From assembly GCA_944474755.1 (NCBI GenBank), contig OX104118.1:75409865-75473864 (forward strand): a stretch of 64,000 bases of DNA, written 5' to 3'. Each line of letters starts with the position of its first letter. Position 1 is the stretch's first letter. Shown piece after piece: positions 3,070-60,700 of the stretch. A program made the position numbers and the translations under genes. The notes below the pieces were generated by a model. The model ran no database searches, was not told where the DNA came from, and saw only the letters and a program-made list of their open reading frames with translations. The DNA comes from Limnoperna fortunei (taxonomy: Eukaryota; Mollusca; Bivalvia; Mytilida; Modiolidae).

Positions 3070-3321
3070 GTTTCTTCAAATACTTCAGATGTAACAGAAA
3101 AAAGCAACCTTTTGCGTTTATTCATTCGAATACGGAGAAGAATGCATTTCTGATGCGACTTGGTAGTCCAGAAAGATAGTGGTAGACGTAGACTTTAGTT
3201 GTAATTTGTGTTAATGACATACATTTTTATTAATATGAAAACCTTATTTATACTGGTTGGCTCTTATTCTCTACTAGTGGATACATTACACTCACAAAAT
3301 CTGTGTGAAAAGGAGGAATAT

Positions 3322-3415
3322 TATAAATAGCAACATGAAACTATATAATTTACTTTGTTTCACGTGATTAATTTTCCGTGGTTAATTATATTATATAGTT
3401 CATGTTGCTATTTAA
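3322..3415. repeat. Short inverted-repeat hairpin
   Basis: Two arms of about 25-30 bp containing TAAATAGCAACATGAA and its complement face each other around a roughly 35-bp loop. It lies about 200 bp upstream of the PHYHIP-like start codon. It is probably a small foldback element. Confidence 0.6.
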
Positions 3416-3619
3416 AGAAAAAGATTACCGTATCACGGGGAAGTTTAAATATGACACATATAAACCACTTTAGGAAAATCAGTCCTAACAAACTTGTCAG
3501 TGTAAATTTTCAAAACTTGTAAATATTAACGTCAGTTTTAGTTTCGAAACTAATCATTTTAGAAGACGACAACTGTGTTATTATTAGTGTGTTTATCCTA
3601 GTTACCGCATTTACCAAAT

Positions 3620-11339: not shown

Positions 11340-12594
11340 ATGGACAGTTCACTTGGCAATCCTACTTACACATTTACTGCGCTTTCAAAAGAGGAGATTA
11401 TTGAAAATCACAAATCGATATTGGCATCCTTTGGTCTCAAAATCAAAGTCGAAGATTGTGATCTCCCCTTATTGTATTGGATACCAAAACTTCACAAAAA
11501 TCCATACAAACAGCGTTTTATAGCAGGATCGTCTAAGTGTTCTACCAAAACACTATCGCAACTCCTGAAAACTATTTTAACAACAGTAAAAACGGGGCTT
11601 CAAAAATACAACGACAATTTCTACTCCAGAGTGGAATAAATGAAATGTGGATATTAAAAAATTCAAAAGACCTGATAAACATCTTGAGGTCTGGATCTCT
11701 TTCCCATTGTAACAGCATTAAAACATTTGATTTTTCGACACTCTATACGCCATCCCTCATATGCAGCTTAAAACTAGGCTTAAAGATCTTATAAAACGCT
11801 GCTTTTTCAAGAAAAATGGAAAGAGACGATATAAATACCTAGTAATTAGTCATGACAGAACTTTCTTCGTCATTAATGACTCTAAATCTAATACTAAATA
11901 TACTGAAGACCAAATCTGTCATATGTTAGATTTTCTGATTGACAACATATTCGTCATGTTTGGAGGACATGTTTTTCAACAGACTGTTGGTATTCCAGTG
12001 GGTACTAATTGTCCTCCTCTCCTCGCCGACCTGTTTTTGTACTCTTATGAGGCTGAGTTCCTAGAAGGCCTGCTGAAGAAGAAAGAAAAGACACCGGCCC
12101 AGACCTTTAATTTAACATTCCGCTATATTGATGATGTTTTGTCATTCAACAATGCTAAATTTGGTGACTATTTACATTCAATTTACCCTAGCGAGCTTGA
12201 AATTAAAGACACCACGAATACATTAAGCTCAGCCTCTTACTTAGACCTACTTCTAGAAATAGACTCAGGAAAACTACAAACTAGACTCTACGACAAACGT
12301 GATGACTTCAACTTTCCAATTGTCAACTTCCCGTTCATCGACAGCAACATCCCAGCAGCTCCAGCGTATGGTGTGTACATTTCACAACTTATACCTTATT
12401 CTAGATCCTGCGATCGGTATTCCTATTTTCTAGACCGATCCCTGCTGTTGACTGCTAAACTACTCAAACAAGGGTTTGTTGCACCTAGGTTGATGTTATC
12501 TCTCCAGAAGTTCTATGGTCGTCACCATGACTTAATTGATCGTTATGGGAAATCAGTGTCTCAAATACGATCTTACATGTTTGCTGAGTCATAG
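11340..12594 (+). pseudogene. Penelope-like reverse transcriptase, frameshifted
   Basis: Three overlapping + frames (11,340-11,639, 11,537-11,794 and 11,761-12,594) together cover a reverse transcriptase. Visible motifs in order are LPLLYWIPKLHKNPYKQRF, motif A FDFSTLYT, the P-V-G-T-N-C-P-P-L-L-A-D run, and the catalytic RYIDDVLSFNN. A conserved tail follows with LYDKRDDFNF and AYGVYISQLI. At least two frameshifts break it, so it is not functional as it stands. No GIY-YIG endonuclease domain follows before the TAG at 12,592. Penelope-like assignment is from the motif A and fingers style (W-I-P-K-L-H-K); other non-LTR classes are less likely. Confidence 0.7.
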
Positions 12595-30700: not shown

Positions 30701-33700
30701 TATTCTTAATTTATTGTTGTTGTTTGCTTAAATGGGTTTAAATGTCACTTTCAGCAATTTTTTAGCTATATCATGGCATCCAGTTTATTTTTTAGGGAGG
30801 AAGCAGGGGTACCTAGAGAAAACCCAAGTCCTTCAGGAGGAAAACTGGCAATCATTGTCAATTAAGGTTAGAGTCAAACACACCCAACCTTCAGAATGGC
30901 TCAAACCTGCAACTTCATTGTTGACAGTCACATGATCAATAGTAGATACCTAATTACTATAATCTCTTGGAAAACAAGACCCTTTATTTATATAAACATC
31001 CTTTTTAATGCCTGTAAACTGAACAAACAATAAAATGTGTGTTTTTATACATACCCTACTTTATAATTATACCTATTAGTAGACTGAGAACAACTGTTCT
31101 GCTGTACCATAAGATAAAAAGATGACGGTCTGCAATTAAATGTCTCAGTTTAAATTTAATACCATAACAGGAGGTTATGAAACTTTCTAAATGTTAACAA
31201 TTGTGTAATTCAGCCTATGACAACTAACTAATGGATGACAGGAAACTCTCTGATACCACATCTGTTTTGTTTTATTCTTACTGATTTGGGATAGATAAAT
31301 AGAAATCATATATACATGTAGCAGTTACCTGCAGAACTGGTTGGATAAATCTCCTGGCAAACTCCTCTTCCCAGTTTGACCTTGAAGCTTTGTCCAGTAG
31401 TCCACATATGTTTGGAGGATTATTCTCTCCTAAAATTAAAGTTTATGCTGATTGAAATGATATTGATAAATCTATTATTGTAATGGTTAAACATGAACGT
31501 TTGCTTGGTTTAGTATTCAAAGACTGGTTCCTTAACACCCCTATAATGTGATTGTGCACAACAATGTAAGGTATAATACTTATTGATTCTTAAAAACAAA
31601 AAAAAACATCCAGCAGTTAATTGCTAATAACATTGTTAATACACACACATTTTGTTAAGAGAACACACCAATAACAAAGGGGAATAATTCACTTGAATAT
31701 AAAGTAACATTCTGAAACTTATTAAACATGCATTTAACCTAAACATGCGTGGCAATCAACCAATAATTTAATTTTGTTAATTTCCAATGAGTACAGAATC
31801 CACCTTTCTGTTTAGGGCATTTCATATTACATGAAAAGAATATTTGAACATGCAAAATTATCTTACCTATGGCAGCTATGTTGTGTTCATCCATGATCTG
31901 AGCCAGAAGGAAATGAATTAGATCCAGGATGTCATCTTTGTTTTTACCGAGTATATTCAGTAAGGAGGTCAGGTCTAGATCTATGTGTTACATAAAGAAT
32001 CTTACCTATCACTGCCATGTTGTGTTCATCCATGATCCGAGTTAGAAGGAAATGAATCAGAACCAGGATGTCATCTTTGTTTTTACCAAGTACATTCTGT
32101 AAGGAAGTCAGGTCTAGATCTATGTGCTCTAGTATGTATATTACCTATGACAGCCAACTTCTGTTCATCCAGTTGATCCATGATCCGAGCCAGAAGAAAA
32201 TGAATCAGAACCTGGATGTCATCTTTGTTTTTACCGAGTACATTCTGTAAGGAAGTCAGGTCTAGATCTATGTGCTCTAGTATGTATCTTACCTATGACA
32301 GCCATGTTGTGTTCATCTGTGATCTGAGCCAGAAGGAAATGAATCAGAACCAAGATGTCATCTTTGTTTTTACCAAGTACATTCTGTAAGGAAGTCAGGT
32401 CTAGATCTATGTGCTCTAGTATGTATCTTACCTATGACAGCCATGTTGTGTTCATCCATGATCTGAGCCAGAAGGAAATGAATTAGATCCAGGATGTCAT
32501 CTTTGTTTTTACCGAGTATATTCAGTAAGGAGGTCAGGTCTAGATCTATGTGTTACATAAAGAATCTTACCTATCACTGCCATGTTGTGTTCATCCATGA
32601 TCCGAGTTAGAAGGAAATGAATCAGAACCAGGATGTCATCTTTGTTTTTACCAAGTACATTCTGTAAGGAAGTCAGGTCTAGATCTATGTGCTCTAGTAT
32701 GTATATTACCTATGACAGCCAACTTCTGTTCATCCAGTTGATCCATGATCCGAGCCAGAAGAAAATGAATCAGAACCTGGATGTCATCTTTGTTTTTACC
32801 GAGTACATTCTGTAAGGAAGTCAGGTCTAGATCTATGTGCTCTAGTATGTATCTTACCTATGACAGCCATGTTGTGTTCATCTGTGATCTGAGCCAGAAG
32901 GAAATGAATCAGAACCAAGATGTCATCTTTGTTTTTACCAAGTACATTCTGTAAGGAAGTCAGGTCTAGATCTATGTGCTCTAGTATGTATATTACCTAT
33001 GACAGCCAACTTCTGTTCATCCAGTTGATCCATGATCCGAGCCAGAAGAAAATGAATCAGAACCTGGATGTCATCTTTGTTTTTACCAAGTACATTCTGT
33101 AAGGAGGTCAGGTCTAGATCTATGTGCTCTAGTATGTATCTTACCTATGACAGCCATGTTGTGTTCATCCATGATCTGAGCCAGAAGGAAATGAATCAGA
33201 AACAGGATGTCATCTTTGTTTTTACCCAACACATTCTGTAAGGAAGTCAGGTCTAGATCTATGTGCTCTAGTATGTATCTTACCTATGACAGCCATGTTG
33301 TGTTCATCCATGATCTGAGCCAGAAGGAAATGAATGAGAACCAGGATGTCATCTTTCTTTTTACCTAGTACATTCTGTAAGGAGGTCAGGTCTAGATCTA
33401 TGTGCTCTAGTATGTATCTTACCTATGACAGCCATGTTGTGTTCATCCATGATCTGAGCCAGAAGGAAATGAATCAGAAACAGGATGTCATCTTTGTTTT
33501 TACCTGGTACATTCTGTAAGGAAGTCAGGTCTAGATCTATGTGCTCTAGTATGTATCTTACCTATGACAGCCATGTTGTGTTCATCCATGATCTGAGCCA
33601 GAAGGAAATGAATGAGAACCAGGATGTCATCTTTCTTTTTACCTAGTACATTCTGTAAGGAGGTCAGGTCTAGATCTATGTGCTCTAGTATGTATCTTAC

Positions 33701-36700
33701 CTATGACAGCCATGTTGTGTTCATCCATGATCTGAGCCAGAAGGAAATGAATGAGAACCAGGATGTCATCTTTCTTTTTACCTAGTACATTCTGTAAGGA
33801 AGTCAGGTCTAGATCTATGTGCTCTAGTATGTATCTTACCTATGACAGCCATGTTGTGTTCATCCATGATCTGAGCCAGAAGGGAATGAATCAGAACCAA
33901 GATGTCATCTTTGTTTTTACCAAGTACATTCTGTAAGGAAGTCAGGTCTAGATCTATGTGCTCTAGTATGTATCTTACCTATGACAGCCATGTTGTGTTC
34001 ATCCATGATCTGAGCCAGAAGGAAATGAATCAGAAACAGGATGTCATCTTTGTTTTTACCTGGTACATTCTGTAAGGAAGTCAGGTCTAGATCTATGTGC
34101 TCTAGTATGTATCTTACCTATGACAGCCATGTTGTGTTCATCCATGATCTGAGCCAGAAGGAAATGAATGAGAACCAGGATGTCATCTTTGTTTTTACCC
34201 AGTACATTCTGTAAGGAAGTCAGGTCTAGATCTATGTGCTCTAGTATGTATCTTACCTATGACAGCCATGTTGTGTTCATCCATGATCTGAGCCAGAAGG
34301 AAATGAATCAGAACCAAGATGTCATCTTTGTTTTTACCAAGTACATTCTGTAAGGAAGTCAGGTCTAGATCTATGTGCTCTAGTATGTATCTTACCTATG
34401 ACAGCCATGTTGTGTTCATCTGTGATCTGAGCCAGAAGGAAATGAATCAGAACCAAGATGTCATCTTTGTTTTTACCAAGTACATTCTGTAAGGAAGTCA
34501 GGTCTAGATCTATGTGCTCTAGTATGTATCTTACCTATGACAGCCATGTTGTGTTCATCTGTGATCTGAGCCAGAAGGAAATGAATCAGAACCAAGATGT
34601 CATCTTTGTTTTTACCGAGTACATTCTGTAAGGAAGTCAGGTCTAGATCTATGTGCTCTAGTATGTATCTTACCTATGACAGCCATGTTGTGTTCATCTG
34701 TGATCTGAGCCAGAAGGAAATGAATCAGAACCAAGATGTCATCTTTGTTTTTACCAAGTACATTCTGTAAGGAGGTCAGGTCTAGATCTATGTGCTCTAG
34801 TATGTATCTTACCTATGACAGCCATGTTGTGTTCATCTGTGATCTGAGCCAGAAGGAAATGAATCAGAACCAAGATGTCATCTTTGTTTTTACCAAGTAC
34901 ATTCTGTAAGGAGGTCAGGTCTAGATCTATGTGCTCTAGTATGTATCTTACCTATGACAGCCATGTTGTGTTCATCCATGATCTGAGCCAGAAGGAAATG
35001 AATCAGAACCTGGATGTCATCTTTGTTTTTACCGAGTACATTCTGTAAGGAAGTCAGGTCTAGATCTATGTGCTCTAGTATGTATCTTACCTATGACAGC
35101 CATGTTGTGTTCATCTGTGATCTGAGCCAGAAGGAAATGAATGAGAACCAAGATGTCATCTTTGTTTTTACCAAGTACATTCTGTAAGGAGGTCAGGTCT
35201 AGATCTATGTGCTCTAGTATGTATCTTACCTATGACAGCCATGTTGTGTTCATCCATGATCTGAGCCAGAAGGAAATGAATCAGAACCAAGATGTCATCT
35301 TTGTTTTTACCAAGTACATTCTGTAAGGAGGTCAGGTCTAGATCTATGTGCTCTAGTATGTACCTAGCAACCTCTCCTTGTTCTATGTTTGGTTTAATTG
35401 ATTGACAGACAGCCTACAAAATACAAGTATGAACAACAAAGTTCCGATAACATATCTTCAAAGATTTTATATAAATGTTGAAATAAATAAATACCCAAGC
35501 TATGATTGTTTTTAGTTTCCCAAAGTTTATTTCTAGAAGAAGGCCTAAGTAAGAGGCTGACCTATGTGTATTGGTGGTGATTTTATAGCATATCTAAACA
35601 ATTTTCTACAAAAAATTGTATCCAACAATAAGAACCATATATTGAAATCTGTATAATATTTTATGCCTCTCCCCTTCCCCTCTCAACGAATTTGGCAGTA
35701 ATAACACAGCTGTTATCTATTTTTGGAATTGATTGAGCAATAGGTAGAAAACACCTGACAGGTCATTGTATTTTGACTATAATTTCAAGCTTGCTTGGAT
35801 AGATTGAATGCAATATAGTCACAGAATTTTGAATTGTTGGACAAAACATCATCAATATAACAAAATGTGAAATTTTAGGTATGGGCCAGTGTCTTTCCTT
35901 TCTTCTTCAGCAGGCATTCAAGGAACTTAGCCTCATAAGAATACAAAAACAGCATGGTGAGTACTGGTTCATTTGACTTGATTTTTTAATTTTTAAAATT
36001 ACCTCAGGGTTTACATTGGCTCCCACATACATGGATAAATGTGTCAGGAGTCTTAGCACAGCAAATGTGGCTCTGTTTAGCTTCCTTTCTGGTGCAGTGA
36101 CAGGACCTAGGCTAGCAGCTCTACCTAGTACGTGTCCTCTCTCTGTTCTGTCAATACTGCAAAGGTATAATATTTTATAATATATTGTAGAAGTTGTAAA
36201 GAAAAATGGCTGTTCGATCCAATCAAATATACAGGGTTTTTTTAATTGTTACAACACAGCATAATGAAAAATCATGAAAGGCCTCCATATGTGGTCAACT
36301 TATTTAAACTGTGTTTGTATAAATTCAGGAGATAATGGATTGACTATTCAGTTAACAAAATAAACAAAAAAGATTCTGTGTTTGTATAACTATAGACTGT
36401 TTATTTCTAAAATACTAACAAAGTTAACAACTACTGTGGTTTCATTTATTTTCATGGGTATCAATTTTCGTGGTTGAAGGAAAAAAGACAATTCATGGGA
36501 TTCTTAAATTCGTGGTTCACAGAATCGAGGAAAATAAAAAATGAAAGATAGGTGAAGTGCTTACAGATTTTCGGTATTCACATACAATGTTAGTCTGTAC
36601 ATTTTCTAATACATCATTTTGAAGACATAATCGCTCTCGGGAGGTGACAATTGTAAAGCTGATCAAGGGATTCATAGAAATTTACGGTACTTTTAGTGGA

Positions 36701-39700
36701 AAGCGGCGACATTAAAACGAAATGGGACGGGTTAAGAAAGACGATGTAATACGAAACCTGTTATTTGTTGCAGCTTGGGGAAAGGGTTGCATTTTATGCC
36801 ATTTTATGTCTTTTGTAAACACAATTTTAAAAGACTTAAGTAAAATGCAAAATGTTCCAATAAAATCACACGATACCATAAATCACATGATAGTGTACAT
36901 CTAACTACCTATATTGAAAACGGCGTATTTACTGTTTTGTTTTCAAAGTGACATGAAGTAATAAAGATAAAACATTGTTTTGTAGCCATAAACATAATTA
37001 ATAAACATGTCATTTTATAAAAACCAATCTAAATAAACAGTTCATTGCAAATTCGTTGTACATTACCTGGGGCAAAGATTAAGTTTGTTTGTTTTACAAT
37101 AAACTTGATGATATAATTAGTGGTTTTTAAAGATGAAAATCAGTATAAAAAGTATTACAAAATAGATTGCTTTATCGATCGTTATTTCAATTAAGAAAGT
37201 TACTTTAATATTTGTGTAAACATCAACACTTTACAACGAAAAGGCACAACAGGAAGTACGTTCATTACTGACGGGATTATGCAATTAAAAATAACAACTA
37301 TGTTTTTTATCAATTTTATTTCTGTTTAGTGTCATAAACACACTAAAGTTGTTCATAGTGCAACATTGTCATATCTATCGAAAACATATCAATAAAACGA
37401 TGCACTTTGAACATGTCGTCATTATCCATGTAAACAACCGTCCCATAGCAGTTTCTCATAACAGCTTACCGTCATTATAGATTTCTAGGGGTCATTATTC
37501 GTAGAATTCTTAATTTCGTGGTTTGTCCCCACCCACGAAAACGACGAAAATTGGTACCCACGAATAAAAATGAAACCACAGTATTATTTTCAGATCTCCT
37601 ACACAATGAGTTTCCAATGATCTACTAAGTTGTAATCTTTAGGAATAGGATTGTAGTCTACACAAACAACATGCTAGATTACAGTCAAACCACTTCAAAT
37701 AGATCATTTTGGATCACAGATCAACATGAGTTTTTCAGTTTCTCCAAGGATTGATAAGTCCTGCATTGGTGATTGTAATGATTTTCCCTTCGGACAACTT
37801 TGTAGACAGCATCCATTTAATATTAATTTTCAGTATGACTTCATATAGATTTTTCAATTTCTAAAAAGAATGTATTTGATTGTTTGTTTGTATGAGGTTC
37901 TGTGCCTTTTTTGGAAGGATTACAGCAATGTTTCCAGTTATTATTGGGGGAGATTTAGCTGCAGGAAACGGTTAAAAACCCAACCTTTGGGAGGAAATCA
38001 TTTTAGATTGATTGATTGATTGATTAATGGTGTTTAACGCCCGAGCAGCAATATTTCAGCTATATTCAGGCGATGAACATGAAATGGATGATAAAATGAA
38101 CATGAAATGATGATGAATGAAAATGGGATGGGACACAAGGAAAAATAGGGGTAACGGATTTTAGATTGCCACTGGCAAATGGGAGGATGGATAGGATCGG
38201 GCAATTTAGCCTCCTGTAGCGGGATCGAAATCCCTACTCATAGCGAATACTACAGCAGCGTTCTTTAACGTGCGAGGAACGTGGCATTTTTCCCAACACG
38301 GTGCACTAATATGGTTTGCGGTCAGGTTTTCCGTATTATGGCCTGACAACCCCAGCTTGCCAGGGGTACCCCATTCAACCACCTGGGGCACACATCCCAG
38401 TCGGTCTTTAGGCAAACCGACCTGACACGCCGGTCAGGGTACTGGGCGCTATTTAGTCGCCTTTTACGACAAGCTAGCGCGACTGCGGTCTATTCTTTTA
38501 GCCACCCGGATCCCGCACGGGGCGAAATCATTTTAGAAAAACATTTCCAATTAGAACAGAAAAACAAACTTTGCAGTGAACCATCTAATGAACACTAATA
38601 TCTGTGGTATATTGGTATATATTGGCCTAGTGTTTTTAAAGAAGATGATTATATGATTTAACACAGTTTTCAATGGATTTATCGGTATATCAACAAGACC
38701 AACTAACTCACAAAGAAATAAAAGTCACAGGAATTCTATAATATGTTTGTAAATGAGTTGGTTCTGTTGATATACTGATAAATCCATTGAAAACAGTGTT
38801 CAATCTTTATAATTCTTTAAATTCATTTTCCTATTAAGGTATTCACAATACTTTGTTTCTTGTGTATTTTGGTAGCAGGGATAGTCGACCTTACATATGA
38901 ATTTTATTTGTACGAGCCTTAGAAACAGGTAGAAATGCGAGGCTATGCCGAACATTTCTTACCTGTTTTGCTGCGAGTACAAATAAACTTTACATTTTCT
39001 GACAATGTACGAATATTGTGTTTATTCTGCAATCAGAAAATTCATTAAATTCTAAAGGAAAACATGAAAACAGTGCACTTCTAGCTTGAAATTTTCGGCA
39101 CGTATTCGAGTGATAGCCTGACGTCACAAACAAATATCGTATTCGACAACAAGCCGCAAACCAGAACAGAATACTAAATATCGCTAGAAGTATAGACAAG
39201 GGTATCAGGAGTGACGTCATTTTTTACAAATAAAGCTTTGATTTATTCGTATGGTCGTATTCGTATAGTTAAAGCGGCAGTTGCAGAATAAAGTCCTTTA
39301 TTATTAATATATAATATGCATTTCATATTTGACATTACTTCCGAACACCCTGAAAGTGGCTCTAAATTCCAGTGGTCATGTGAAGTCTTTCTTTGTAATG
39401 CTGACATCACATGAAATATGATTGTCAGTTTTTAAAGATCGATTTAGAGATTGCAAAAAAAAAAACCGCATGAAATTTTTGTTATCATTTTTAAATATAA
39501 CATTTATTTTTATCTATGTCAACTTTATTTTTAAGTCTTTATTAAAATTAATTTTAGTGCTCTTCTTCATTCACTTTTTACAGTTCTTTGAAGATATCAA
39601 CTTCCAGACGAAAAAAAATCAATATCAGCATTAAGCAGATTTTGATCACATGACATGTAATTGCCGTAGAGCTCAAGGCTCTTCGCGGGCAGCTTTATAC

Positions 39701-42700
39701 ATATAATTTGTAATCGCTGTCGATATTAAATGCCGCCATCTTTATGCTAAAAAGAGTTGGTCAATGTCATTTATCCAAAAATAAATTGAGTTAACTTTAT
39801 TTATCAAAAAATAAATACCCTTAAAAACCTCAACCTTAAGTAAATTTTGGCCAATTGAATAAATGTATATCTAAATATGCAAATCATATTAGAATTATTG
39901 CTATATAAAAGTTTACAGATGCTGATGCGTTATGATGACACTGAATGATGCTAATAGCTTAATCCTTCAGGTCACATTATCTAAAAAAAGCAGTATTATG
40001 AGTAGGGTTGTGTTTTAATTAATACAGGTTCAGATCAGGTGAAATATTACCAAGGGATCTAAGAAAAATTTTGACGGTTTTTGCTTTTTCAAACAGATCT
40101 TATGTAAATTACAAGCATTTTATTTGAAATTATTTATTACAAAACTTTCAGATACCTAAATCACATGACTTACCAAAGATCAGGCTTACTGCCTGGTTTT
40201 AAATGACACCTTTTACCACCCATTTTGTAGCCACATGTTTAACCTTGACTAACCTAGGATCCAGCTTATTGCCTGGTCTTAACTGATGACCTACATCCCA
40301 TATTTCTTGGCCACATGTTTTACTCTGACTTACCCAGGATCCAGCTCATTGCTTGGTCTTAATTGATGACCTACACCCCTTATTTCTTGGCCACCGCTTT
40401 TACTCTGACTTATCCTGGATCCAGCTCATTGCCTGGTCTTAATTGATGACCTACACCCCTATTTCTTGGCCACATGTTTTACTCTGACTTACCCTGGATC
40501 CAGCTCATTGCCTGGTATTAATTGATGACCTACACCCCCTATTTCTTGGCCACATGTTTTACTCTGACTTACCCTTGATCCAGTTCATTGCCTGGTCTTA
40601 TTTGATGACCTACACCCCTATTTCTTGGCCACGTTTTACTCTGACTTACCCAGTATCCAACTTATTGCCTGGTCTTAACTGATGACCTACACCCCCTATT
40701 TCTTGGCCACCTGTTTTACTCTGACTTACCCTGGATCCAGCTCATTGCCTGGTCTTAATTGATGACCTACACCTCCTATTTCTTGGCCACATGTTTTACT
40801 CTGACTTACCCTGGATCCAGCTCATTGCCTGGTCTTAACTGATGACCTACACCCCCTATTTCTTGGCCACCTGTTTTACTCTGACTTACCCTGGATCCAG
40901 CTCATTGCCTGGTCTTAATTGATGACCTACACCCCCTATTTCTTGGCCACATGTTTTACATCTACCTACATAGGCTGCTCTTCCACACTGAAACAGAAAA
41001 TGAACTATCATAGGATAATAACAAAAAGAAACCAGAAATTATAGAATAATTAGTTTGTATGCTGACAATTAAATGTATAAGCTTGAACAAGATCACATTA
41101 AACTTACAAATCAGTCAGTGATGCGTCACCTGCAGATTGCCTCCCAATTAAATAAGAATGAAGAAGAGTTAATACTCTTATAGGGGTTAAGGACACATGC
41201 ACTGAAAATAACAATTGTTTGAACAAGGAAGAAACTATTGATTATTTGATTGATTGATTGATTGTCCAGCAAGCGTTATTTCAGCTATATTCAGGATGAG
41301 GGGGAAGAGAATAAAAAAGCTCTATAAAAAATGATTTAGAGAGTACTGGTATTTAAGCTCTTCATCTCAATGCTTTGTAAAGTATCATATACCAGTTTTG
41401 TTTTAATTAGGTATCATCTCCTGTATTTTAGCATACATGGTCTTCATAAATACAAGAAAAAATTAAGAGTAAAGTTTTAAGCACAAAACTTCCACTACAT
41501 GTAATAAACTTACATTTCCAATAACATATGGATGGCCATTGGGACATCCTGAAACAAAAAATTAAAATTATCTGTATATCTTAATAAGTTTTAAATAGAA
41601 ATAGTAATAGATCAATTGTCAAGTAAAACTTTTACAGACATTCCTAAGGTACTCATTATCTATTTATAGACACATAATTACATCTTCACAAGTCATGGTA
41701 TCTCTGTCCACCGTTTTGATTGGCTACATTATGCATGTAAATGGTCGAAAAAATCTTGTTTTCTTATGTGAATTGGTAAAAGATATCCCTATCAGGCTAT
41801 AAATAAATAAATTTAAATAAAATTGATGCTTGCTGTATAAAAGTGTTAAAATGATTTCCTAATTGTGACATTCATTAGGTGCAATAGGTTTTTTTGCTGA
41901 ATATTGTCTGCCTCCAGACATTATTTTTCTTAAAGTGATTAATTATTGATTGACATTTTTAAGCTGTGAGATCAAATGAAAATACAGGTGGTTGGGTCTT
42001 CTACATTTGTCAGGGTTGTGAAGATGCATTTTCGCACAGAAACCCTGAATTAGGATGGAATGAGAGAAAAATGTTACTTTTCTATCAAGTGTGTAAATAT
42101 TCACTCTTTAGGTTCCCTTTGAACTTGTATTAATTCACAATCAATACTTACGATAAAACACTGGGTTTTCATTTCTTTGGTGACGTCTTGCTGCTAGAAG
42201 AGCCTCCTTTATTTCTGCCATTTCATCTTGTGGCATGGTTGGATAAAAGGAATTCTGACAGACAAAAAATAAATAATTTTTATTTATGTTTAGTCACTTA
42301 GTGACTGATGTTGATGTCATTACTGGCCTACCTCAACACTATACAAAAATTTTACTGTCATGGACTTCCCATCAGAAAAAGCAACAGTTTAACAGAACAA
42401 ATAGAAACCACAATAACAGTATCACAACACCAGCTATCAGACTTGAAGTGATATTCAATCATTTTTACCATTAAAACTTTAAAAAATATACACAATACAC
42501 ACCACACAATAATGCATTCACTAAGAATTTAAAATAATGTCAACTCACTTCCAGTGATACCATCCTTTTTTAATGTGTAACCTAAACATTCTGTTGTATT
42601 AAATAATATAGGATTAAACACTGGGTTTTAGGAAATTATGGATATGTAATCTCCGGAGACTCACACCCAAACTCAATAAATTCGAAGGACTTTTATGTCA

Positions 42701-45700: not shown

Positions 45701-48700
45701 TTTTTGAACTATAAGCAAAAAACTGTATTTTGACCCCCCTGTTCTATTTTAGCCATGGCGGCCATGTTGGTTGGTCTGAGGCCATGATTTGGGCAAACTT
45801 GGTAGAGGACATTTTACTGATGATGTGTGCAAAGTTTCAAAGCAATCCCTTCAGTGGTTTTGGAGGAGAAGATTTTTGAAGAAAAGTTAACGACGACGAC
45901 GACGACGACGGACGACGACGGACGCCAAGTGATGGCAATAGCTCACATGACCCTTCGGGTCAGGTGAGCTAATAAAAGACAACCCCCATTCCCTCATGAG
46001 CATTTGCAACTCTACTCTCCATCAATTTGCTGTGAAACAAGCAGCCAGTTCCCAGAAGGGGTGGGGGTGAAGATGAGGTGGGAGGGACCTTAAATTTATA
46101 AAAATTGAGTTTTTATTACAATAACTAAGATATTATAATAAATTTTGATATATACTGAATTTAAAGTAATGCTGAATCCCCTAAAAATTGGGTGGAACCA
46201 TCACATATTGAGGTCCCAAAGTAAAGAGGTTGTCACAAAGATGGGGCATAGAGTACAAGTAGTGGTTATAGAAGGTACTGTCTGACCTTTAATAACCAGC
46301 TGACAAAGCCTCTGATAAAGAAGAGGAATTAAAAATATTCCATGAGGAGGCTAGCACTCTTACTTCATGTGCCTTAACTTGACGCTTAGACAAGTATGAG
46401 GAGAAGGGGATTAGTAAGCCATAAGGATAGATTGACAAATCCAAGTAGAAAAGGCTTTTGCCGAAATATCCTGAACTGCATTTTTAATAGGGATAAAAAG
46501 TCGGGTAGAGTTAAGGTTTCTTAAACTAGAAGACCTAGTCAAATATTCCAGCAAAGTTCTGACTGGACAAAAGGTCTTATCACCAGCCATTGCAGGTAAA
46601 GATGGAATGGTGATAGTGCTAGAGCCTTTCTCTGCCAGTTGATTCTTGGCTAGGAAAGAAGGATCTGTCTATAGGGTAACTGAAGTCTTGTCCGCTGTGA
46701 ACCGCATACAAGATTCAGAAATAGAAAAAGCATGTATCTCACTTCTCCTTCGTCCAGAAGCTAAAGCCAGTAGAAAACAACATTTAAGATAAATGTTGAA
46801 AACTGGTCGAGGACAATGGTTCAAAGGGATAAAGCTGTAAGCTTACTCGGCTTTCAAAACTACAGCCAAGTCCCAAGGAGGAACCAAATGTCTCTGTTTG
46901 GGACGCTCCAAGTAAAAGTTTCTGATAAGAAGAGACAAAAACTCCAGAAAGGTGAAAATAGCAGACCTATAACCTTTTATAGTAGAGGGTGCAAAACCTT
47001 GATCCTCAAAAAGGTAAATAAAAAATCAGCTATCTGTTGTACAGAACTTATCCAGAGATACGCTTGGCTTCCCTTTCAGAAATACCTCTTTCTGATTCCT
47101 GACGTAATAGCAGCAAAACATGAAGATGTAGAAGCTGAACACCTGAGTGTAACTTCTGACTTTCAACTGGGATGAGAGATCCTTTCAAAGAGGAAGACAA
47201 AGAGGATTTGCACAGGACAACTGTAGCAGATCTGGAAATCAACCACGTCTCTGCCAGGCTGGAGCAATTAGAATGGTCTTGCAACCATCCTTGCAAATCT
47301 TGTGAAGAATCCTAGGGGGAGGGGGGGGGAGAAGAAATGGAGGAAACATGTAACTGAACATCCCTTTCCAAGGAGTGGACATAGCATCTACTGCTATCGC
47401 CTTGTCGTCTGGAATAGGAGATACATAAGTTTCCAGTTTGTGATTTAAACTGGTTGCAAAAAGATCTCTGTGGGAATGACCCCACAACAGAATGATCTGC
47501 TGAAAAACTGCTGGATGCATTTCACATTCCTTATACAAGATTCTGCCTGCCTCGGACATGCCTCACTGTCCGAGAAGAATCGATTCTGCTGCAAAACAGA
47601 AGAATCTCTCTGCAGAGGAGAAACAGAGGGTAAGAGTGGGTTCGGCCCTAGTTCTGAAGATAAGCCACCACAGTTGAATTGTCTGTGGCTTTCAACAGAG
47701 TCTGACCCTGAATTATTTCTATGAAGTGTCTCAGGGCCAGCAAGACTGCTCTCATCTCCAGAACATTGATGTGATCCTCCAACTCAAGAGATTCCAAAGG
47801 CCTGAAACTGACCTGCCAGAAAAGCACCTCAACCTGAAAGGGAGGCATCTGTGAACAGAGTCAGATTTGGAGCTGGAGGATCTAAAGGTAAACATTTTAC
47901 AAAATTCTCCCTCTGTAACCACCAATTGAGATGAGGGAGAAGTTGAGGCCGGACAGGAATGAGAGCTACCCATTCCTGAGATGCTGGATGCCAAAACTGC
48001 ATGAGATACCAACAAACAGGTTGAATGTGAAGGCAACCTAATGGTACTATGTCCATCAGTGATATCAGGAAACCCACTAACTGAAGGAAACGATGAGAAG
48101 GGATTGTAGAGGCTTGCAAATTATAAAACTGATCAACCCAACACAAAAGAAAACTAGCAGAAAATGATATTAAATCCCATGTCATCAATCATTATGTCAA
48201 TATTTCCTTTGTAATGTATACCTGTAACATCTGTTCCAGAGTTTGGCTATTTTCGTTCAGAGCAGTAGTTACTATTGTTTCCCGTAACTGTTTATAGTCA
48301 TCTCCAGTCACTATATATCTGTCATGACATTCTTTGATCTGTAAAATAACAATGTCAGCTGATGAGCAATGTGGAAACACAAATAAGGGACCTCAAAATT
48401 GCTGAAGACTATTATTTTATCATCATGCTTATACTTGCTATAAGTTTCAAGTTGCTGGTTTTAATCATCTATTTATATAGTTATTAATACTTCTTATCTA
48501 CAAAACCTGGACATATTTCACTTGCATTTGTTTTTGGCCTTACATTAAATTAAACAAGAGTATCTGTGAGCTAATTCTCACTAGTGATACCCCCACCAAA
48601 AAGTATTCCATAAACAGGAAGTAGATGATCAAGGAGCATGAAATCACTATACACCATATGGAGCTATAGGATAAAGCAATATGCAAAATATCAGGCATGT

Positions 48701-51700
48701 ATTTATACTGTTATTTTGAGATATTTAGTGGCCTCAAATTTTACTGTATATGATATTATACACATACTGCCTGTAGTGGAGGGTGTTATGCCAGAATATC
48801 ACACAAAGTAAATATATTACCCAAGATGTAGTCGAGGGTGATATTTTTAATGAGTGTGATATTCTGGCATAACAGCCTACACTACTAGCAGTATGTGTTA
48901 TATTATACTGAATACACTTTTCAATATATTTGGGGAACACAATTTCCTGTCAAGAGGATGATATATTGAGAAGTGTGAAATATTGGGTCAATCAATTTTG
49001 GTGCTATATTGTTGTCTAGAAATTGTAGCTAGTAAAGAACAGATTGGAATAACTCATCCAATAAAAACTTAAGATTTTTGTATCAAGTATAATATCAGAA
49101 CATTTTCTTTAATAAGCTATATTTGTTCAACAAAAGTACATCAAATGAACAAAACATTACACAGAATAATATATTAATTTTAACATCACAAAAATTGACT
49201 GAAGTTAACTGTTTAAGAAATTCTAAACCTAAAGAAATATAGATAACTGGGTCACAACAGACTGTGAGAAATCTAATAGAAGTAATCTTCATTACTCATG
49301 TGACATTAACATGAGTGCCATGTGACATTAAATTGGGTGTCATGTGACATTAAATTGGGTGTCATGTGACATTAATGTGTAATATGACATTTACTTGGGT
49401 GTCATGTGACAATACTTGTGTGTCATGTGACATTTACTTTTGTGTAATGTTATATTACCGCAAGTGGTGTATGTATGACATTCATCTGGGTGTCCTGTGA
49501 CGGTCCCATGGGAATTGTGTGACATTAACCTTGGTGTCGTGTAAAATTTACTCGGGTATCGTGTGACATAAACCTAAGTGTCGTGTGACAGTCATCTAGG
49601 TGTCACAGTACAAATAAATAAATAAGATAACTAATGCATTTAACAAAAATTATCAATCAAGTCAGTTTAAGTCTTTCATTAAATGATATCACTCTAAACT
49701 TGCTTACGACAAATATATTCAAATCACCTTGTTATTCTTCAGTTCTGGCAGATGAACCCATCGTAGAAAGCTGGCTTCACTTTTGGTGACAACTGTTTGG
49801 TAACTGTCTATACCATAAGATCTACACAACTGTTTTACAAAATATCTCCTACAATGTATTATTCAAACTAATATAAGCATTTTACATTACCCTTTCAAAA
49901 TACAGAAGCTTTGATGACTGAGTGGTAAAGGTAGTTAGTAATTACCACATGGTCTGTCAACACTGAGTTTGCGGAGTCTCACTACTCTTAAGTAACAGGA
50001 TTGACAGTTTTCCTACTGAAGGTTGTTGGTTTTTTCTAGGTACTCTTGCTTCCTCCCCCAATAATAACTGGATGCCATGATATAGCTGAAAAATTGCTGA
50101 AAATGACATTAACACCTTTCAAACAAACAAACAAACAAAATATCTGTTTATAAATATTCTACTTGTAGGATATATTATTTCAGAGATAAATATGGGCTCC
50201 AGTTTTTTTTTAGAAAGCATGTCAAGTAGTAGTAAAAAGATGTTGTTTTAGTAATAACAAATATTTGTTTTTTTGTTTGTTCTTTATACTAAACAATATT
50301 AAACTGAAAATTTATTTATTATTGACCTTTTAAAAACAGGATTCCCTAATCATTTGAAATAAATATATTTACCTTGGCCATGGTGATCCACACTCATCAC
50401 AAAGTTTGGCAGCAGCATCAAAAAGTCTTCTGATGTTTGCATCAGGCATGACAGCTTTGTGTGCTCCTCCATATTGTTTATGTATATACTTAGCAACAAT
50501 TGTTAATGAAAATCGTGTTTTGGAAATATGGTCAATTTTCTCTAATGTGTGAATTTCATTTGTTATGATGGCTGATGCATCTCTCAACATTTTTGTTGCC
50601 ATGGTAATTTCATCCTCTCTGTTTGCAAAGTGTTGATGCAGAGAGTCCTAAAAGCAAAAAGAAGACATTAACAGATGAATTCCACTCAAAACAACCCACA
50701 ATTCCCCTTGCACTTTCATAGAAACATATTTTGTATCGAAAGGTTCAAAAGTATGTGTGATTGTAAGCAACTAAAAATGTATCTCTTTAAAGATTAACAT
50801 AAATATATATTATATACCATATGCACTATTATTACCTCCATACACTGAAGAACCAACACACAAAGTTCCACAAGGTGGTGGGTATTTCCAGTGGATTTCA
50901 ATAATTGACTGGCATTGTTAAAGTATGCTGAAAGATGGGTGTCAATTTCAGGTCCACTGAAATATAACCAGTTGTTTCAAGTGCATTACAATAAAACTAA
51001 AGTAGCTTTAATTAAAGTAATGTTTACTATAGTTCATTTCTGTCACCATTTTACGAAATAATAGCATAAAGACAAATCTTCATATCCAACCATTTGCAAA
51101 ATTAAAATTAGAAATATATTTCTAACCTGAGTAAAATCATGTTAATATGTTTAAAGAAAAAAAATATATATATTTCTTTACAATTTTTGAACACCAAATA
51201 TAGAATGTTATTAATTCTCTACATATGTACCTCATATTTAAATAAGTGAATACTTAAGGTTAATATAGATGACTAAAGCCTCTAAGTAATTTTATACCTT
51301 GTTTGCATCAGCTGTTGTAACAAAAATGACCGAACAACAGGTGTAGGATCAATACAGTCATCAAAGATCGTCAGTTCCTTTGACACCACTCTTTCTACTT
51401 TCTTTTTCCCGACATGACCAATAATGTAAGACAAAAGTTTCTGAACAACTTCCTGTGATGGTGGAGTCCCTTCGGCAAAACACAACTGTGACACGACTTC
51501 CATGAAAAAACTGTTACATCTGTTTCTATAGTCCTGGTATTTTTTTATTTCTCCACTGACAAAATCAATGCAGAATATTAAAATATCATAGTTGCATCAA
51601 AATAAACTTATTTTAGTTTTTTGCATTTGATATGTAGGCAAACAATTATTAAAACAAGCTAGTATTTTTACCCACATATTTGTCTTTTTCGTCATTACTT

Positions 51701-54700: not shown

Positions 54701-57700
54701 TTAAATTGGATAATATTTATATCAAAAGGTCAATCTGATACGACCCGTAATGGGATATTGTGAGATCTTTCAACACGACATACCAGTTTAAAGCGAGTGA
54801 TTAGAGATCAAATTTTAATTAGAATGCTAGATTTTGCAAAAATTTTGGGATTTTTTGGTATTATTATCGCATAATCAATCAATCAATGTTTATAATATCT
54901 AATATGTACATATCATTTAAAATATATTTTGTACGTCCAATACTAGTAATGTACTGAAATCTTACCAATTCATCATCATTAATGAGATAAAATTTAGATT
55001 CTTTCTGTTGAAAATCCAGAACTTTCTGACTACACTGCGGCCATATATGGACTAGGTGTGAAAAGTTTTTGAACCTAACATTATGTAGATTATAAGTCAT
55101 GTGACATCCCAGCATGGAGGGTAATAGACGTCCATATTCTCCTCTAATTAGCTGTCTGCAGCCAATCATTACACTTTCACATACAAGCTGAAAAATAATT
55201 CCTTGTCTCACAATATACAAATTGGTTCAAAACTGCATTAAGAACCAGTGGAAATGAAAATTAGCAGATTGCTTTCCTCATCATTTTTTATAATTAACAC
55301 AGATAAAAAAAATTAAGAAAAAACAGATGGAGACTATGAAAACAAACAGATACAATAAAATACACTTTAGATCAAGTATGAATGGTTTCAATTCAGTTAT
55401 AAGACGTCTTACATTACATTCAGCCTCAGACTGAACAGGATGGACCATGTATACAAAGTCTACAATGTAAGACTTAAGGACTTCATGAAACTGTGACCCT
55501 TCTAAACTTGATAGGAGTCTTCCCATTGGTAGAGTCTGGAATATTTCTGCTGCTTTGATCACAACATCAAAATGGCTTTCTAAAATAAAAACAACACAAT
55601 AAATTTTGCTTTTCTGCCATATTTACACTGTACACTGTATAAAATACAGGATATTAATTTGCCTGATATCATAAAACTAAGGATGCTAGTTTTTTACATG
55701 CTAGATGTCTATTAACCAGTATCAGAAATATGCAGTCACTATAATTACTATTTAAAGCAAATTCTGTCTGAAGACTTAGAATCTGTACAGATTTGTTTGC
55801 TTGTTTGTTTGGTGTTTAATGCCACTTTAAGCAATTTTTTAGCTTTATCATTGCCCCCAGTTGTTATTGGGGAGGATGAAGTACTTGATGAAAACCTTAC
55901 TTTCGTCAGGAAAACTTATCATGGTATTATCGATAATTTATTTACATTATTTATTATATATAAAAATTATTTTAGATTGTTTTTCTAGTAATACAGATTA
56001 TTTTGGCATTTACTGGTTCCAGTGGAGTGGACCACTGAGAAAAATTTGATTATTTTGTTATATTAACATACTAATGGTTTCTAACTTATATGACTCCTGT
56101 CACTAGAGACTATCTACTCACCATGTTCCACTGTATATACACTTGTTAAGTGTTTTTCACTAAAATAGCCTCCTCACAAGAGGTCACTCCTTTCATAAGA
56201 CCAAATTTTCAAAGCAGAAGGCATCTTAAGTTCTGAACAGTAATCTTATACGAATATATAAACTAAGTTTTTACCTTCAATATCTTTGGATACTATTGTT
56301 TCCCTTAAAACTTCTTCAATCTGTGAAAACATCAGCCAAGAGAAAGGCATTGCTGCTGAGAAAGCTGTTCCTTCTTTTGAGGTCATTTTGACAGCAACTT
56401 CCTGAAGTTCTAGTTGTCGATAAGGAGACACCATTGATGAATATTTTAGCTGGGTAAGTTCTGGGTTGTTCAATATTTGTATCCAAATCTCAACTGTCCA
56501 GTCCTGAGTACTCTTTCCTAGAATGTCCAGATTTCTGTTTGTATCAATGAAGGCAATAATTCCAGACAAAACTGGAATGACCTTTGACTCTAAGCTGTGT
56601 ACAGCAAACTTTCTGGAAAATAAACACAATATACTAAAAAACCCATATTTTATTAACAGTAACCTTATTGGAAAATTTTACAATAAAAGTATAATGGATC
56701 AATTGAACAAAGTTATTATACGAACAACTAACTCTATAATTGAAATTTACACTGACGGGTCATTTGGTAATATGTGGGATCACTTGAACTGGTTCAAACC
56801 CACCACAAACATATTAAAATGACTTATCTAAGCCAGCAGTTTATGCCATGGTTTTTTTCCCTTCTGTTGTTTTTCATGCATTTTGTCAGATTTGTCATCT
56901 CTCTTTGAATGACCAATTTAATGTGACCTTTGTGTTTGGCTTATTTTCTCTGTTGATTAAAATGAAAGGTGCTTCATTTTCAATCAATAAGGCTCACAAG
57001 AGCACACACAGTGCATGAGAAATAAAACAATATATTACAACATAAGAATTACTATTACATTAAGAGAATTTTGCCTGTTTTTTTTATTGGTCTAAAAAGT
57101 ACTTTCAGGTCTTGTTAAATCAAAACAGTACTAAAATTCCATCAAAAATAGTTTTGTCTTCTGCACAAGCGGTCAAATGGAATCTAATATTGACATGTTT
57201 ACTGATCTGATTCAAAGTCTAATTCATGTACGTGTTTGCAACACAAAAAATTTGGTAAACAACAATGAATGCTCCTGCTGCTAATAAATTTACTATAATA
57301 TATAAAGACTTGTTATCATTCATGTAATAAAACTTTGATATGTGGTTGAAATCAATATTTCTCAACTCTTAAAAATGTATATTCACCTTGCTTAGCGGTT
57401 TGCTGAATATTACATTTTCTAAGGTGTAAAAATCCCGATAGCGACCTATATCAAAGTAAGTAATAGTATAAAAATGTAATAATAGTAAATAACATTGTCA
57501 TATGTTTATACTCCCTGTACAGCATTCCCAATCATTACCTGAATGTACCAGCTCTGTTAATGTTTTCAGGTTTTGACGCCTCAGATGACAGCCAGTTTTT
57601 ATTAACTCTTCCAATATTTTTTTCCTTTTCATGGAGTATAATGGACAAATGTTTTGCGATTCCAGACAGAACTGTCATTTCACCTTTAAATTATTAAGCA

Positions 57701-60700
57701 AGATTAGATGAAATTAAGTTTTTACACAAATTCAGGTGTAATTTTTAAGACCCAATATGTTTTGTATCTTATTTGAGACATATTTTTATATGAAACATAT
57801 CAAATTGCTTATAAACAGTTATAATTTTAATCTGAATATTACCTTGGCAGAATAAACCTGTACCTGTATTAGTCTGTAAAAAATTAGGAATGATATTAAA
57901 TTTGTCTATTTCCCTGGATAAATCTAATCCATTAAAATGACAGTTTCCAAAGAAAGACTTCTTACTTTGTTCAGTTTGTCAACAGCTGAGAATGACTTCC
58001 AGTTCATTTTCTTTTCCCTTTAATTAATTTAACTGTTTCCAAATGAGACTACTCACCTTGTTCAATCTGTAAACAGTTACGGATGATTTTCAGTCTGTCT
58101 ATTGCCCTGGAGGGGTCTGATTCAAGATCTTTTACATTACCCAAGGGAGACCACTCACCATGTTCAGTCTGTAAACAGTTATGGATGATTTTCAGTCTAT
58201 CTATGGCCCTGGAGGGGTCTGATTCAAGGTCTTTTACATTACCCAAGGGAGACTACTCACCCTGTTCAGTCTGTAAACAGTTGTGGACGATTTTCAGTCT
58301 GTCTATTGCCCTAGAGGGGTCTGATTCAGGATCTTTTACATTACCCAAGGGAGATTACTGACCTTGTTCAGTCTGTAAACAGTTATGGATGATTTTCAGT
58401 CTGTCTATTGCCATGGACGGATCTGATTCAGGATCTTTTACATTACCCAAGAGAGATTACTCACCTTGTTCAGTCTGTAAACAGTTATGGATGATTTTCA
58501 GTCTGTCTATTGCCATGGAGGGGTCTGATTCAGGATCTTTTACATTACCCAAGGGAGATTACTCACCTTGTTCAGTCTGTTATCAGTTATGAATGATTTT
58601 CTTTCTATCTATGGCCCTGGAGGGGTCTGATTCGGGATCTTTTACATTACCCAAGGGAGACTACTCACCTTGTTCAGTCTGTAAACAGTTATGGATGATT
58701 TTCAGTCTATCTATGGCCATGGAGGGGTCTGATTCAGGATTTTTTACATTACCCAAGGGAGATTACTCACCTAGTTCAGTCTGTAAACAGTTATGGATGA
58801 TTTTCAGTCTATCTATGGCCCTGGAGGGGTCTGATTCAGGATATCTGACTTTACCCAAGGGAGACTACTCACCTTGTTCAGTCTGTAAACAGTTATGGAT
58901 GATTTTCAGTCTATCTATGGCCATGGAGGGGTCCGATTCAGGATCTTTTACATTACCCAAGGGAGACTACTCACCTAGTTCAGTCTGTAAACAGTTATGG
59001 ATGATTTTCAGTCTATCTATGGCCCTGAAGGGGTCTGATTCAGGATCTCTGACATTACCCAAGGAAGACTTCTCACCTTGTTCAGTCTGTAAACAGTTAT
59101 GGATGGTTTTCAGTCTATCTATGGCCCTGGAGGGATCTGATTCAGGATCTTTTACATTACCCAAGGGAGATTACTCACCTTGTTCAGTCTGTAAACAGTT
59201 ATGGATGATTTTCAGTCTATCTATGGCCCTGGAGGGGTCTGATTCAGGATCTTTTACATTACCCAAGGCAGGCTGAATACACTTCTTTATCAAGTAATCA
59301 ATTTTAAACTGTCCTCCTGGTCTTGGCATTTTGACAGTTAGTTTCCCTTGATTCTCAGTGTCCATCAAATCAACATCTCCTTCATTTATTTCCATTCCTT
59401 CCATCCCTTGTTCCTCTGTGTTTTCTTCAGTCTCCATATTAACCTCATCTCTGCCTTTTGCTGAGATCAATAATGCACAGACAGTTTTCCCATGCATCTC
59501 AGCCACAGATGGTATGTCTTTTGGAGCAGGGTGGATATCATCTATGTGGACAGAATGCCATAATCCACACTGAAATATAAAGTAAAATCTGAGCTTTAAG
59601 CATGGTAGTTGAGTGGACAGAATGCTCATCAGTTGTGAGAAAACATCAATGCAAATGATTAAAACACCTATAATAACAAAACAGGAATATAATTTGTATT
59701 TTATTTTATATCAGCAGTCTTGCTTTTATTAATAAATCAGTTGAAGGTCTTATTTAACAAACAATGCAATTTAAACTTTACACTCAATCGTTTTCGTAAT
59801 ATTTTGATATTTTCTTTTTAGTTCAATGATGAGTATTGATTAGACATAATAAAATGTATAACTTTTGATCACATTTATCCACAATATATCACCTACCTGG
59901 AATCCAGTAAAACATCCACCAGCTATACCTGGTAGCTGTATCATGAAGACAACATGGATGGCATAAGTTCTCTCCCTTTGGATCTGCTGTAACTCTCCCT
60001 GTACAGTATATCTAGCACATGCTATCAGGTCTGCATTCTGGTCCCCACAGTCACACTGGACTATCAGTAACATGTCTGATTCAGTACTATGGTCCATGCA
60101 GGACCTGAAAAGAAGACACAAATGGATTAGGCTCTTGCCTCTTGGATCTGCTATTGCAGCTATACTGTGCACCTAATCCAAGCTATCAAGTCAGCAATCT
60201 GGTCCCAAGGTTAACAATGAATGTACTACCATTTGGTTTGTTTGTTTGTTTAAATGATGTTTAATGCCACTTTCAACAATTTTTCAGCTATATCATGACC
60301 TCCAGTTTTTATTAATGAACTCAAGGTTTTATGGGGGATGAAGCTGGAGTACCAACAGAAAACCCCCAACCTTCAGTAGGAAAACTGACAATCCTTGTCA
60401 ATTAAGATTGGAGTCTAGCACACCCTGCTTGCAGTGAGGCTCGAATATGCAATCTCAGTGCTGACAGACCATGTGATCAATAGTAGACAAACTACCTGAA
60501 CCAATCGGCCACTGAGCAAGTCAGAAAGAGATAGAAAATTAATGGACTATCTACCTTCTAAATAAGTTTTTATTAGATTTCATCTAATTTTAAAACAAAA
60601 AAGTATCAAAAGAACACCATTGTATTTTTTCTATACTGAATATAACCAAGTGATTTTAATTTTTATAACAGTTTTGTCCCAAAAGAATGAACATTTCACA

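What the first reader, a model, noticed from the sequence alone, without database searches (positions are those of the whole stretch)
31863..59268. Three unrelated tandem arrays in one gene, each built from an exon 3' end plus its 5' splice site
Arrays A (57.8-59.3 kb, 102 bp), B (31.9-35.4 kb, 139 bp) and C (40.2-41.0 kb, 80 bp) arise from three different exons of the RNF213-like gene and share no sequence, yet have the same design. Each unit starts inside the exon, runs to the exon end, includes the full donor (GTGAGT, GTAAGA or GTAAGT) and stops about 5-13 bases into the intron. All lie directly downstream of the parent exon in the sense direction. Together they add more than 40 donor-like sites. 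One explanation is tolerance: a duplication crossing the donor leaves the first donor working and the rest in the intron, so it is invisible to selection. Alternatives are that donor clusters have a function (U1 binding, suppression of early polyadenylation, retention or alternative splicing) or that exon-intron borders are prone to duplication here. I know of no named phenomenon for this.
Basis: partly seen in the sequence, partly recalled or inferred. Interest (0 to 1): 0.87.

Follow-up and report, generated by a model that had tools for sequence, protein, structure and literature searches.

The report
Intron arrays of copied splice donors
In one very large animal gene the end of three exons, each with its splice signal, has been copied in tandem many times into the following intron, likely harmlessly because splicing would still use the first copy; this kind of array was already described in lancelets, and here it also sits in related genes and in unrelated ones such as an importin-13-like gene.

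Summary
On the minus strand of an RNF213-like gene three unrelated arrays (A 102 bp, B 139 bp, C 80 bp) consist of an exon 3' end, its donor and 8-12 nt of intron; 47 of 48 scored units keep GT. Found here: array B is shared by four paralogs with about 3 to 70 units, array C by three; a distant paralog has an independent donor-spanning array at the same exon, and its sister shows the unduplicated state with 16/18 homology at the breakpoints. In 100 paralog exons donor-spanning copies lie at 11 (5 founders), acceptor-spanning copies at none. Genome-wide, 23-bp tandem donor motifs give 163 matches (reversed control 55), acceptor motifs 54 (control 188); 5 of 10 inspected donor clusters sit on exon donors, 2 of them confirmed by homology. 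Units gather stops and frameshifts, and one paralog amplified units with a dead donor, so a required donor function is unlikely. Best reading: tolerated duplications growing as intron minisatellites, refreshed from the exon. No RNA evidence was available.

The parts
59179..59569 (-). parent exon A (391 nt) of the RNF213-like gene
   Evidence: PDB RNF213 match E 5.7e-5; acceptor and donor in gene model
57862..59268 (-). array A: 102-bp units, exon 3' end (90 nt) + GTGAGT + about 6 nt; 12 clean units (58045-59268) and two decayed part-copies (58007-57955, 57931-57862)
   Evidence: TRF, profile search, alignment
40890..40987 (-). parent exon C (98 nt), second half of an RZ zinc finger
   Evidence: PF20173 E 1.2e-8; donor position conserved in paralogs P3, P4, P8, P9, P10
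40166..40958 (-). array C: 80-bp units, exon 3' end (69 nt) + GTAAGTCAGAG; 10 units, the last decayed
   Evidence: TRF, profile search
35230..35413 (-). parent exon B (184 nt)
   Evidence: gene model; conserved with same boundaries in paralogs; weak PDB match
31860..35360 (-). array B: 139-bp units, exon 3' end (131 nt) + GTAAGATA; 25 units
   Evidence: TRF, profile search
31878..32991 (-). 549 identical bases repeated at offset 565 (about four units) inside array B

Best explanation
The three arrays are donor-type 'mirages': tandem duplications that run from inside an exon across its 5' splice site a few bases into the intron, likely tolerated because the first donor would still be used and the extra copies would leave with the intron. 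Shown: the units span the donor; the founder of B is present in four paralogs and that of C in three; a second founder arose at the same exon in P7; the copies are not kept as coding sequence; and units with a dead donor were amplified too in P5. Inferred: a founder arises by a short-homology or slippage duplication between exon and intron start (homology at the breakpoints was seen only in P7/P6), after which unequal exchange or slippage expands, contracts and homogenises the array, with the conserved exon end as the source of fresh units, while copies far from the exon decay. Inferred: splicing uses donor 1, because using the next donor would put a stop codon into the message for A, B and C.
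For: Unit anatomy. The unit farthest from the exon is the most decayed: A 0.66, C 0.73, B 0.90 identity to the exon copy against 0.93-0.97, 0.89-0.99 and 0.91-0.99 for the other units. Distinct changes against the exon copy, N/S/stop: A 31/17/2, B 19/15/2, P5's B 53/19/3, C 21/8/2, neutral expectation about .72/.26/.03; in P5's B array 41 of 68 units are frameshifted and 13 others have in-frame stops. In-frame stop 5, 59 and 1 nt past donor 1 for A, B, C. Same junction of B, with later changes, in P1, P2, P3, P5; about 25, 6-7, 3 and 70 units. In the stretches compared, P2, P3 and P5 align with the window gene at exons and arrays, and otherwise only over 133 bp of P2 (window 30851-30720), while array blocks are still about 85-90% alike, so units were probably renewed. 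P7: 69-bp array; sister P6 unduplicated, 16/18 homology at the breakpoints (58 nt exon + 11 nt intron = 69); 0.85% of 2000 random intron draws score as high. P5's C array: 19 of 19 donor-like sites that the pattern found in its distal part read GGATAAGT or GCATAAGT; TRF 15.2 copies of 64 bp. Donor 11 of 100 against acceptor 0 of 100 exons. Exons with such arrays in other genes: importin-13-like (three exons together, E 1.4e-10), Cadherin_3 (E 6e-7).
Against: No RNA data: use of the first donor is inferred. Breakpoint homology is at chance level for A (against P8 and P4) and for B (against the terminal intron), so short homology is shown for one founder only. In the window's own arrays the share of replacement changes is below neutral (A 62%, B 53% of distinct changes), which fits refreshing from the exon but also some constraint. 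Renewal from the exon is not directly shown, and the AU test does not reject a tree in which all functional exon copies, the window's included, form one clade (p 0.26). The short intronic part (8-12 nt in four founders; about 6e-5 under uniform breakpoints, post hoc) is not explained by tolerance alone.
Confidence: 0.82

Rival explanations
1. The donor clusters have a function in RNA: many U1 sites in the intron would suppress premature polyadenylation or tune splicing, and selection keeps them.
For: GT is kept in 47 of 48 units in the window and 69 of 69 in P5's B array, whose donor 9-mer ranks 8th of 131 positions in conservation.
Against: Ranks elsewhere are unremarkable: A 67 of 94, B 40 of 131, C 61 of 72. 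P5's C array amplified a unit with GT changed to AT. No array was found at exon B in P4, P6, P8 or at exon C in P3, P4, P8, P9, P10.
Confidence: 0.07
2. As in human IFI6, the units supply alternative donors that give productive protein isoforms.
For: A human precedent in an interferon-induced gene (PMC4526556, passage); units with donor scores of 5 bits or more: 12 of 13, 22 of 25, 9 of 10, parents included.
Against: Use of the next donor puts a stop 5, 59 or 1 nt past the first donor; units of 139 and 80 bp shift the frame.
Confidence: 0.05
3. A donor-directed mutational mechanism makes these duplications: breaks or stalls a short fixed distance past the donor, rather than tolerance filtering random duplications.
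For: Intronic part 8-12 nt in four founders whose units are 69-139 bp; five donor and no acceptor founders; 163 against 54 tandem motif matches genome-wide although the acceptor motif is commoner in the 170 kb held, 44 against 21; two founders at one exon.
Against: Few founders; post hoc; the two-copy case in P9 has a longer intronic part, about 21 nt by eye; acceptor-spanning duplications may simply be removed by selection because an upstream acceptor copy would be chosen first (recalled, not tested); matches within an array are not independent and only one period was tested.
Confidence: 0.2
4. Assembly artefact: collapsed or expanded repeats.
For: A 549-bp exact repeat inside B; only one assembly held.
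Against: Diverged units, decayed edges, and arrays of the same founders in several paralogs.
Confidence: 0.03

Closest known systems
Mirages: minisatellite-like tandem duplications of exon-intron boundaries in amphioxus (Adh3, globins BflGb6 and BflGb9; PGBD5) (PMC3087553 and PMC3902484, passages)
   Same: Unit spans an exon-intron boundary; units of 10-160 bp; many copies keep AG/GT signals; concerted evolution inside with excluded edges; exon copy intact.
   Different: Amphioxus has both donor and acceptor mirages (BflGb6: 6 and 3 units in two haplotypes); here five founders are all donor-type, with up to about 70 units, two founders at one exon, and a donor-dead unit amplified. There RT-PCR suggested undisturbed splicing; here no RNA was available.
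Human IFI6 (6-16/G1P3) minisatellite with multiple splice donors (Turri 1995: title in reference list only, paper not held; described in PMC4526556, passage)
   Same: Minisatellite whose units carry splice donors.
   Different: There two downstream repeat units are used as donors; here use of the next donor would bring a stop codon.
Intron gain by tandem genomic duplication (PMC4974935, abstract start in search listing only)
   Same: Tandem duplication creates extra splice signals.
   Different: No intron is created: the introns are present at the same positions in unduplicated paralogs.

Membership tests
Mirage (amphioxus-type boundary minisatellite) | tandem unit spans an exon-intron boundary of a real gene | tested here: met
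Mirage (amphioxus-type boundary minisatellite) | concerted evolution inside the cluster, edge unit excluded from it | tested here: met
   edge units 0.66 (A), 0.73 (C), 0.90 (B) identity to the exon copy, the lowest of each array
Mirage (amphioxus-type boundary minisatellite) | unit number unstable between alleles | not testable with these tools
   one assembly only; between paralogs B varies from about 3 to 70 units
Mirage (amphioxus-type boundary minisatellite) | regular splicing of the mRNA is undisturbed | not testable with these tools
   no RNA data held
Mirage (amphioxus-type boundary minisatellite) | both 5' and 3' boundaries can be affected | tested here: inconclusive
   0 of 100 acceptors, 11 of 100 donors in RNF213-like paralogs; not a required feature of each case
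IFI6-type donor minisatellite | downstream units serve as donors in mRNA | not testable with these tools
   no RNA; stops 5, 59 and 1 nt past donor 1 speak against productive use
Intron gain by tandem duplication | the duplication creates a new intron | tested here: not met
   same introns in paralogs without the array

The most novel reading that the evidence does not exclude
Splice donors are duplication hotspots in this genome: founders break 8-12 nt past the donor and hardly ever at acceptors, and the resulting intron arrays act as a reservoir that exchanges sequence with the coding exon end, so that array variants (V to I in the window gene, H to D in paralog P5) enter the protein of an expanded RNF213-like family.
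Probability: 0.12. Interest if true: 0.82.

Novelty: new member of a known kind. Interest (0 to 1): 0.55.

Why it matters
It carries a little-known phenomenon, described in lancelets with a related human case, to another animal genome and offers natural experiments that separate its explanations: an unduplicated sister, a second founder at the same exon, arrays of about 3 to 70 units from one founder, and an array that kept growing after its donors died. If the donor-over-acceptor bias holds genome-wide it bears on how introns lengthen, on how new introns and cryptic exons may start, and on whether splice donors are fragile sites. Arrays with dozens of good decoy donors would also be a natural test of how the spliceosome chooses the first of many near-identical donors.

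Tried and rejected
Donor function by conservation: no consistent excess. Coding or exonised arrays: rejected by stops and frameshifts. Breakpoint homology for founders A and B: chance level; a CCTTG.GTA likeness in P8's intron is seen by eye but could be a remnant of a lost copy. Gene conversion of exon B into P3: suspected because exon B is far more alike than the exon before it, dropped because some other P3 exons are equally well conserved. Acceptor hits (3 of 29 exons): none covers the acceptor. Exons without a GT or AG at the expected place were skipped before the count of 100; their number was not printed. The Fisher test treats matches within one array as independent and is not used as evidence. 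The planned genome-wide count of long-unit donor arrays (gaps of 60-90) did not complete.
Full report
Observation. TRF confirms three unrelated arrays on one gene: A 58045-59268 (102 bp x 12), B 31859-35362 (139 bp x 25), C 40230-40959 (80 bp x 9.2). Read on the minus strand, each unit is the 3' part of an exon (90, 131, 69 nt), its donor and a short piece of intron (about 12, 8, 11 nt). A profile search adds two decayed part-copies to A and one decayed unit to C. The gene is RNF213-like: exon A matches RNF213 chains (E 5.7e-5), exon C completes an RZ zinc finger (PF20173, E 1.2e-8), an exon with weak RING matches, all below their cut-offs, lies between, and exon B matches only weakly (E 0.45) but is held in place by paralogs. 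GT is kept in 13/13, 25/25 and 9/10 units. Random placement would let all three span a donor with P = 2.6e-4. A check of 29 modelled exons found copies across the donor at exactly these three and across the acceptor at none.

Paralogs. The window is C8:75409865-75473864 of an unnamed 1.34-Gb assembly. A 388-residue query gives 127 matches, those listed all on C8, among them about ten further RNF213-like genes; nine are called P2 to P10 here. At exon B, P1 (window), P2, P3 and P5 carry the same founder with about 25, 6-7, 3 and 70 units and the same junction AAGATA|C(A/T)TACTAG with later changes (many P5 units are 4 nt shorter there); P4, P6 and P8 have one copy. P7 has a different array at the same exon: 69-bp units, 4.1 plus 2.2 copies. 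Its sister P6 shows the state before: exon GTATTGATACATTATATA and intron GTATTGAAACATGATATA, 16 of 18 alike, placed so that duplication between them gives 58 + 11 = 69 bp; 0.85% of 2000 random intron draws score as high. The same test gives nothing for A and B. Array C is shared by P1, P2 and P5. Array A is clear only in the window gene; of six paralogs looked at behind exon A (P2, P3, P4, P6, P7, P8; about 1.3 kb each) only P2 has a further match, a 60-bp decayed copy 1 kb downstream. Exon C ends at the same place in P3, P4, P8, P9 and P10 without an array, so the first donor is the ancestral one.

Donors against acceptors. In 100 exons with both boundaries found (72 in the near-complete genes P1, P3, P7, P10; 28 in pieces chosen because they hold exons A, B or C), copies across the donor occur at 11 exons and across the acceptor at none. 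The 11 reduce to five founders: A, B, C, P7's B, and a two-copy case at the exon after B in P9. In the 72 exons alone it is 5 against 0.

Genome-wide. GGTAAGT repeated at 23 bp gives 163 matches, its reversed control 55. TTTCAGG repeated at 23 bp, the acceptor counterpart, gives 54, its reversed control 188. In 170 kb held here, mostly this gene family, GGTAAGT occurs 21 times and TTTCAGG 44 times, so the donor excess is not due to motif frequency. Matches within an array are not independent: clusters of at least two matches number 10 in the donor list, which shows 100 of 163, and 5 in the complete acceptor list. I read all 10 donor clusters and 6 of the 15 listed single matches; the acceptor clusters were not read. 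Of the 10 clusters, 5 sit on the donor of an open exon with an acceptor before it: L001, L064, L067, L068, whose arrays begin inside the exon, and L070, whose array begins at the donor itself. Two lie in the intron just behind an exon (L065, L069), 3 show no exon (L066, L071, L072; in L072 the array reaches the edge of the stretch). Of the 6 singles one (L004) looks donor-spanning, one (L005) lies close behind an open frame, four show nothing. Homology confirms the exon in L001 (importin-13, three exons together, E 1.4e-10) and L070 (Cadherin_3, E 6e-7); for L064 (E 0.0011 with the next exon, below cut-off) and L068 (E 0.096) it is weak, for L067 there is none. Only one period was tested.

How it works. 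Copies beyond the first are not kept as protein: distinct changes against the exon copy N/S/stop are 31/17/2 (A), 19/15/2 (B), 53/19/3 (B in P5), 21/8/2 (C), with 41 of 68 frameshifted units in P5. The window's A and B arrays are lower in replacements than neutral, as expected if units are refreshed from a constrained exon. Using the second donor would bring a stop 5, 59 or 1 nt past the first. The donor 9-mer ranks 67/94, 40/131, 8/131 and 61/72 among unit positions for conservation (A, B, P5's B, C): no general selection on donors, one hint in P5's B. Against donor function stands P5's C array: the exon donor is GGGTAAGTC, but 19 of 19 donor-like sites that the pattern found in the distal array are GGATAAGT or GCATAAGT, and this dead unit was amplified to about 15 copies. 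In the stretches compared, introns of P2, P3 and P5 do not align with the window's outside exons and arrays, except for 133 bp of P2, while array blocks remain about 85-90% alike: the arrays are likely renewed, most simply from the exon end. The copy farthest from the exon is the most decayed in each array, and a 549-bp exact repeat shows recent exchange if it is real.

Exon-array exchange. In the window gene the functional copy of exon B's end groups inside its own array (support 0.90), while those of P2 and P3 pair with each other and that of P5 stands near the base. All five bases at which it differs from the majority of the other functional copies occur in the arrays of P1 and P5, but at four of the five at least one outgroup has the same base, so these may be ancestral; only V to I (site 67) is absent from the four outgroups, and P2's functional copy shares it. 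In P5, H to D (site 112) is found in the functional copy and in 37 of 68 of its own units, and in no other array or outgroup. The direction of transfer is open, and the AU test does not reject one clade of all functional copies (p 0.26). This stays a suggestion.

Known things. Lancelet genes carry 'mirages', tandem duplications of exon-intron boundaries at donors and acceptors, apparently spliced normally, with homogenised interiors and divergent edges (PMC3087553, passages; PMC3902484, passage). Human IFI6 has a minisatellite with donors in use (PMC4526556, passage). The present arrays meet the structural definition of a mirage. Searches for boundary minisatellites and for mollusc cases (one search listed 20 of 77) listed no bivalve example; a clam globin paper (PMC4732748, passages) describes interspersed intron repeats. 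Subscription journals are mostly not held.

Verdict. A real, recurrent and mostly explained phenomenon: donor-type mirages, likely tolerated and refreshed from the exon. Open points are the donor-over-acceptor bias and the 8-12 nt reach into the intron in four of five founders, which tolerance alone does not explain.

Noticed in passing
window 21685-23258: 167-bp x 9.5 array is a dispersed satellite: the same unit forms arrays in introns of paralogs P3 and P7, unlike the private donor arrays.
   Followed up: partly
window 31878-32991: 549 identical bases at offset 565 inside array B: very recent exchange or an assembly error.
   Followed up: partly
L048 (C8:65843900-65848900), 2932-3902 of the stretch: Array C of paralog P5 grew a 64-bp derivative unit whose donor GT became AT.
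   Followed up: yes
L026 and L039, about C8:65850.3-65860.2 kb: About 70 units of array B over 10 kb in paralog P5, with about 640 bp between units 20 and 21 that the search does not recognise as array.
   Followed up: no
L044 (C8:4818000-4819600), about 1224-1370: Two-copy donor-spanning duplication behind the exon after B in paralog P9, possibly a founder stage.
   Followed up: partly
window 58593-59276 (+): The opposite strand of array A is an open frame of 227 codons because 102 bp is 34 codons; mechanical.
   Followed up: no
window 11731-12594 (+) and 46411-48188 (-): Open frames that look like reverse-transcriptase or retroelement fragments (recognised from memory, not tested).
   Followed up: no
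window 49296-49590: 22-bp x 13.5 intronic array; not tied to an exon boundary of the gene model.
   Followed up: no
L065 (C3:19056500-19058600): A 23-bp array starts about 110 nt behind an exon that reads like a protein kinase (HADLKPDN, motif recalled), without spanning its donor.
   Followed up: partly
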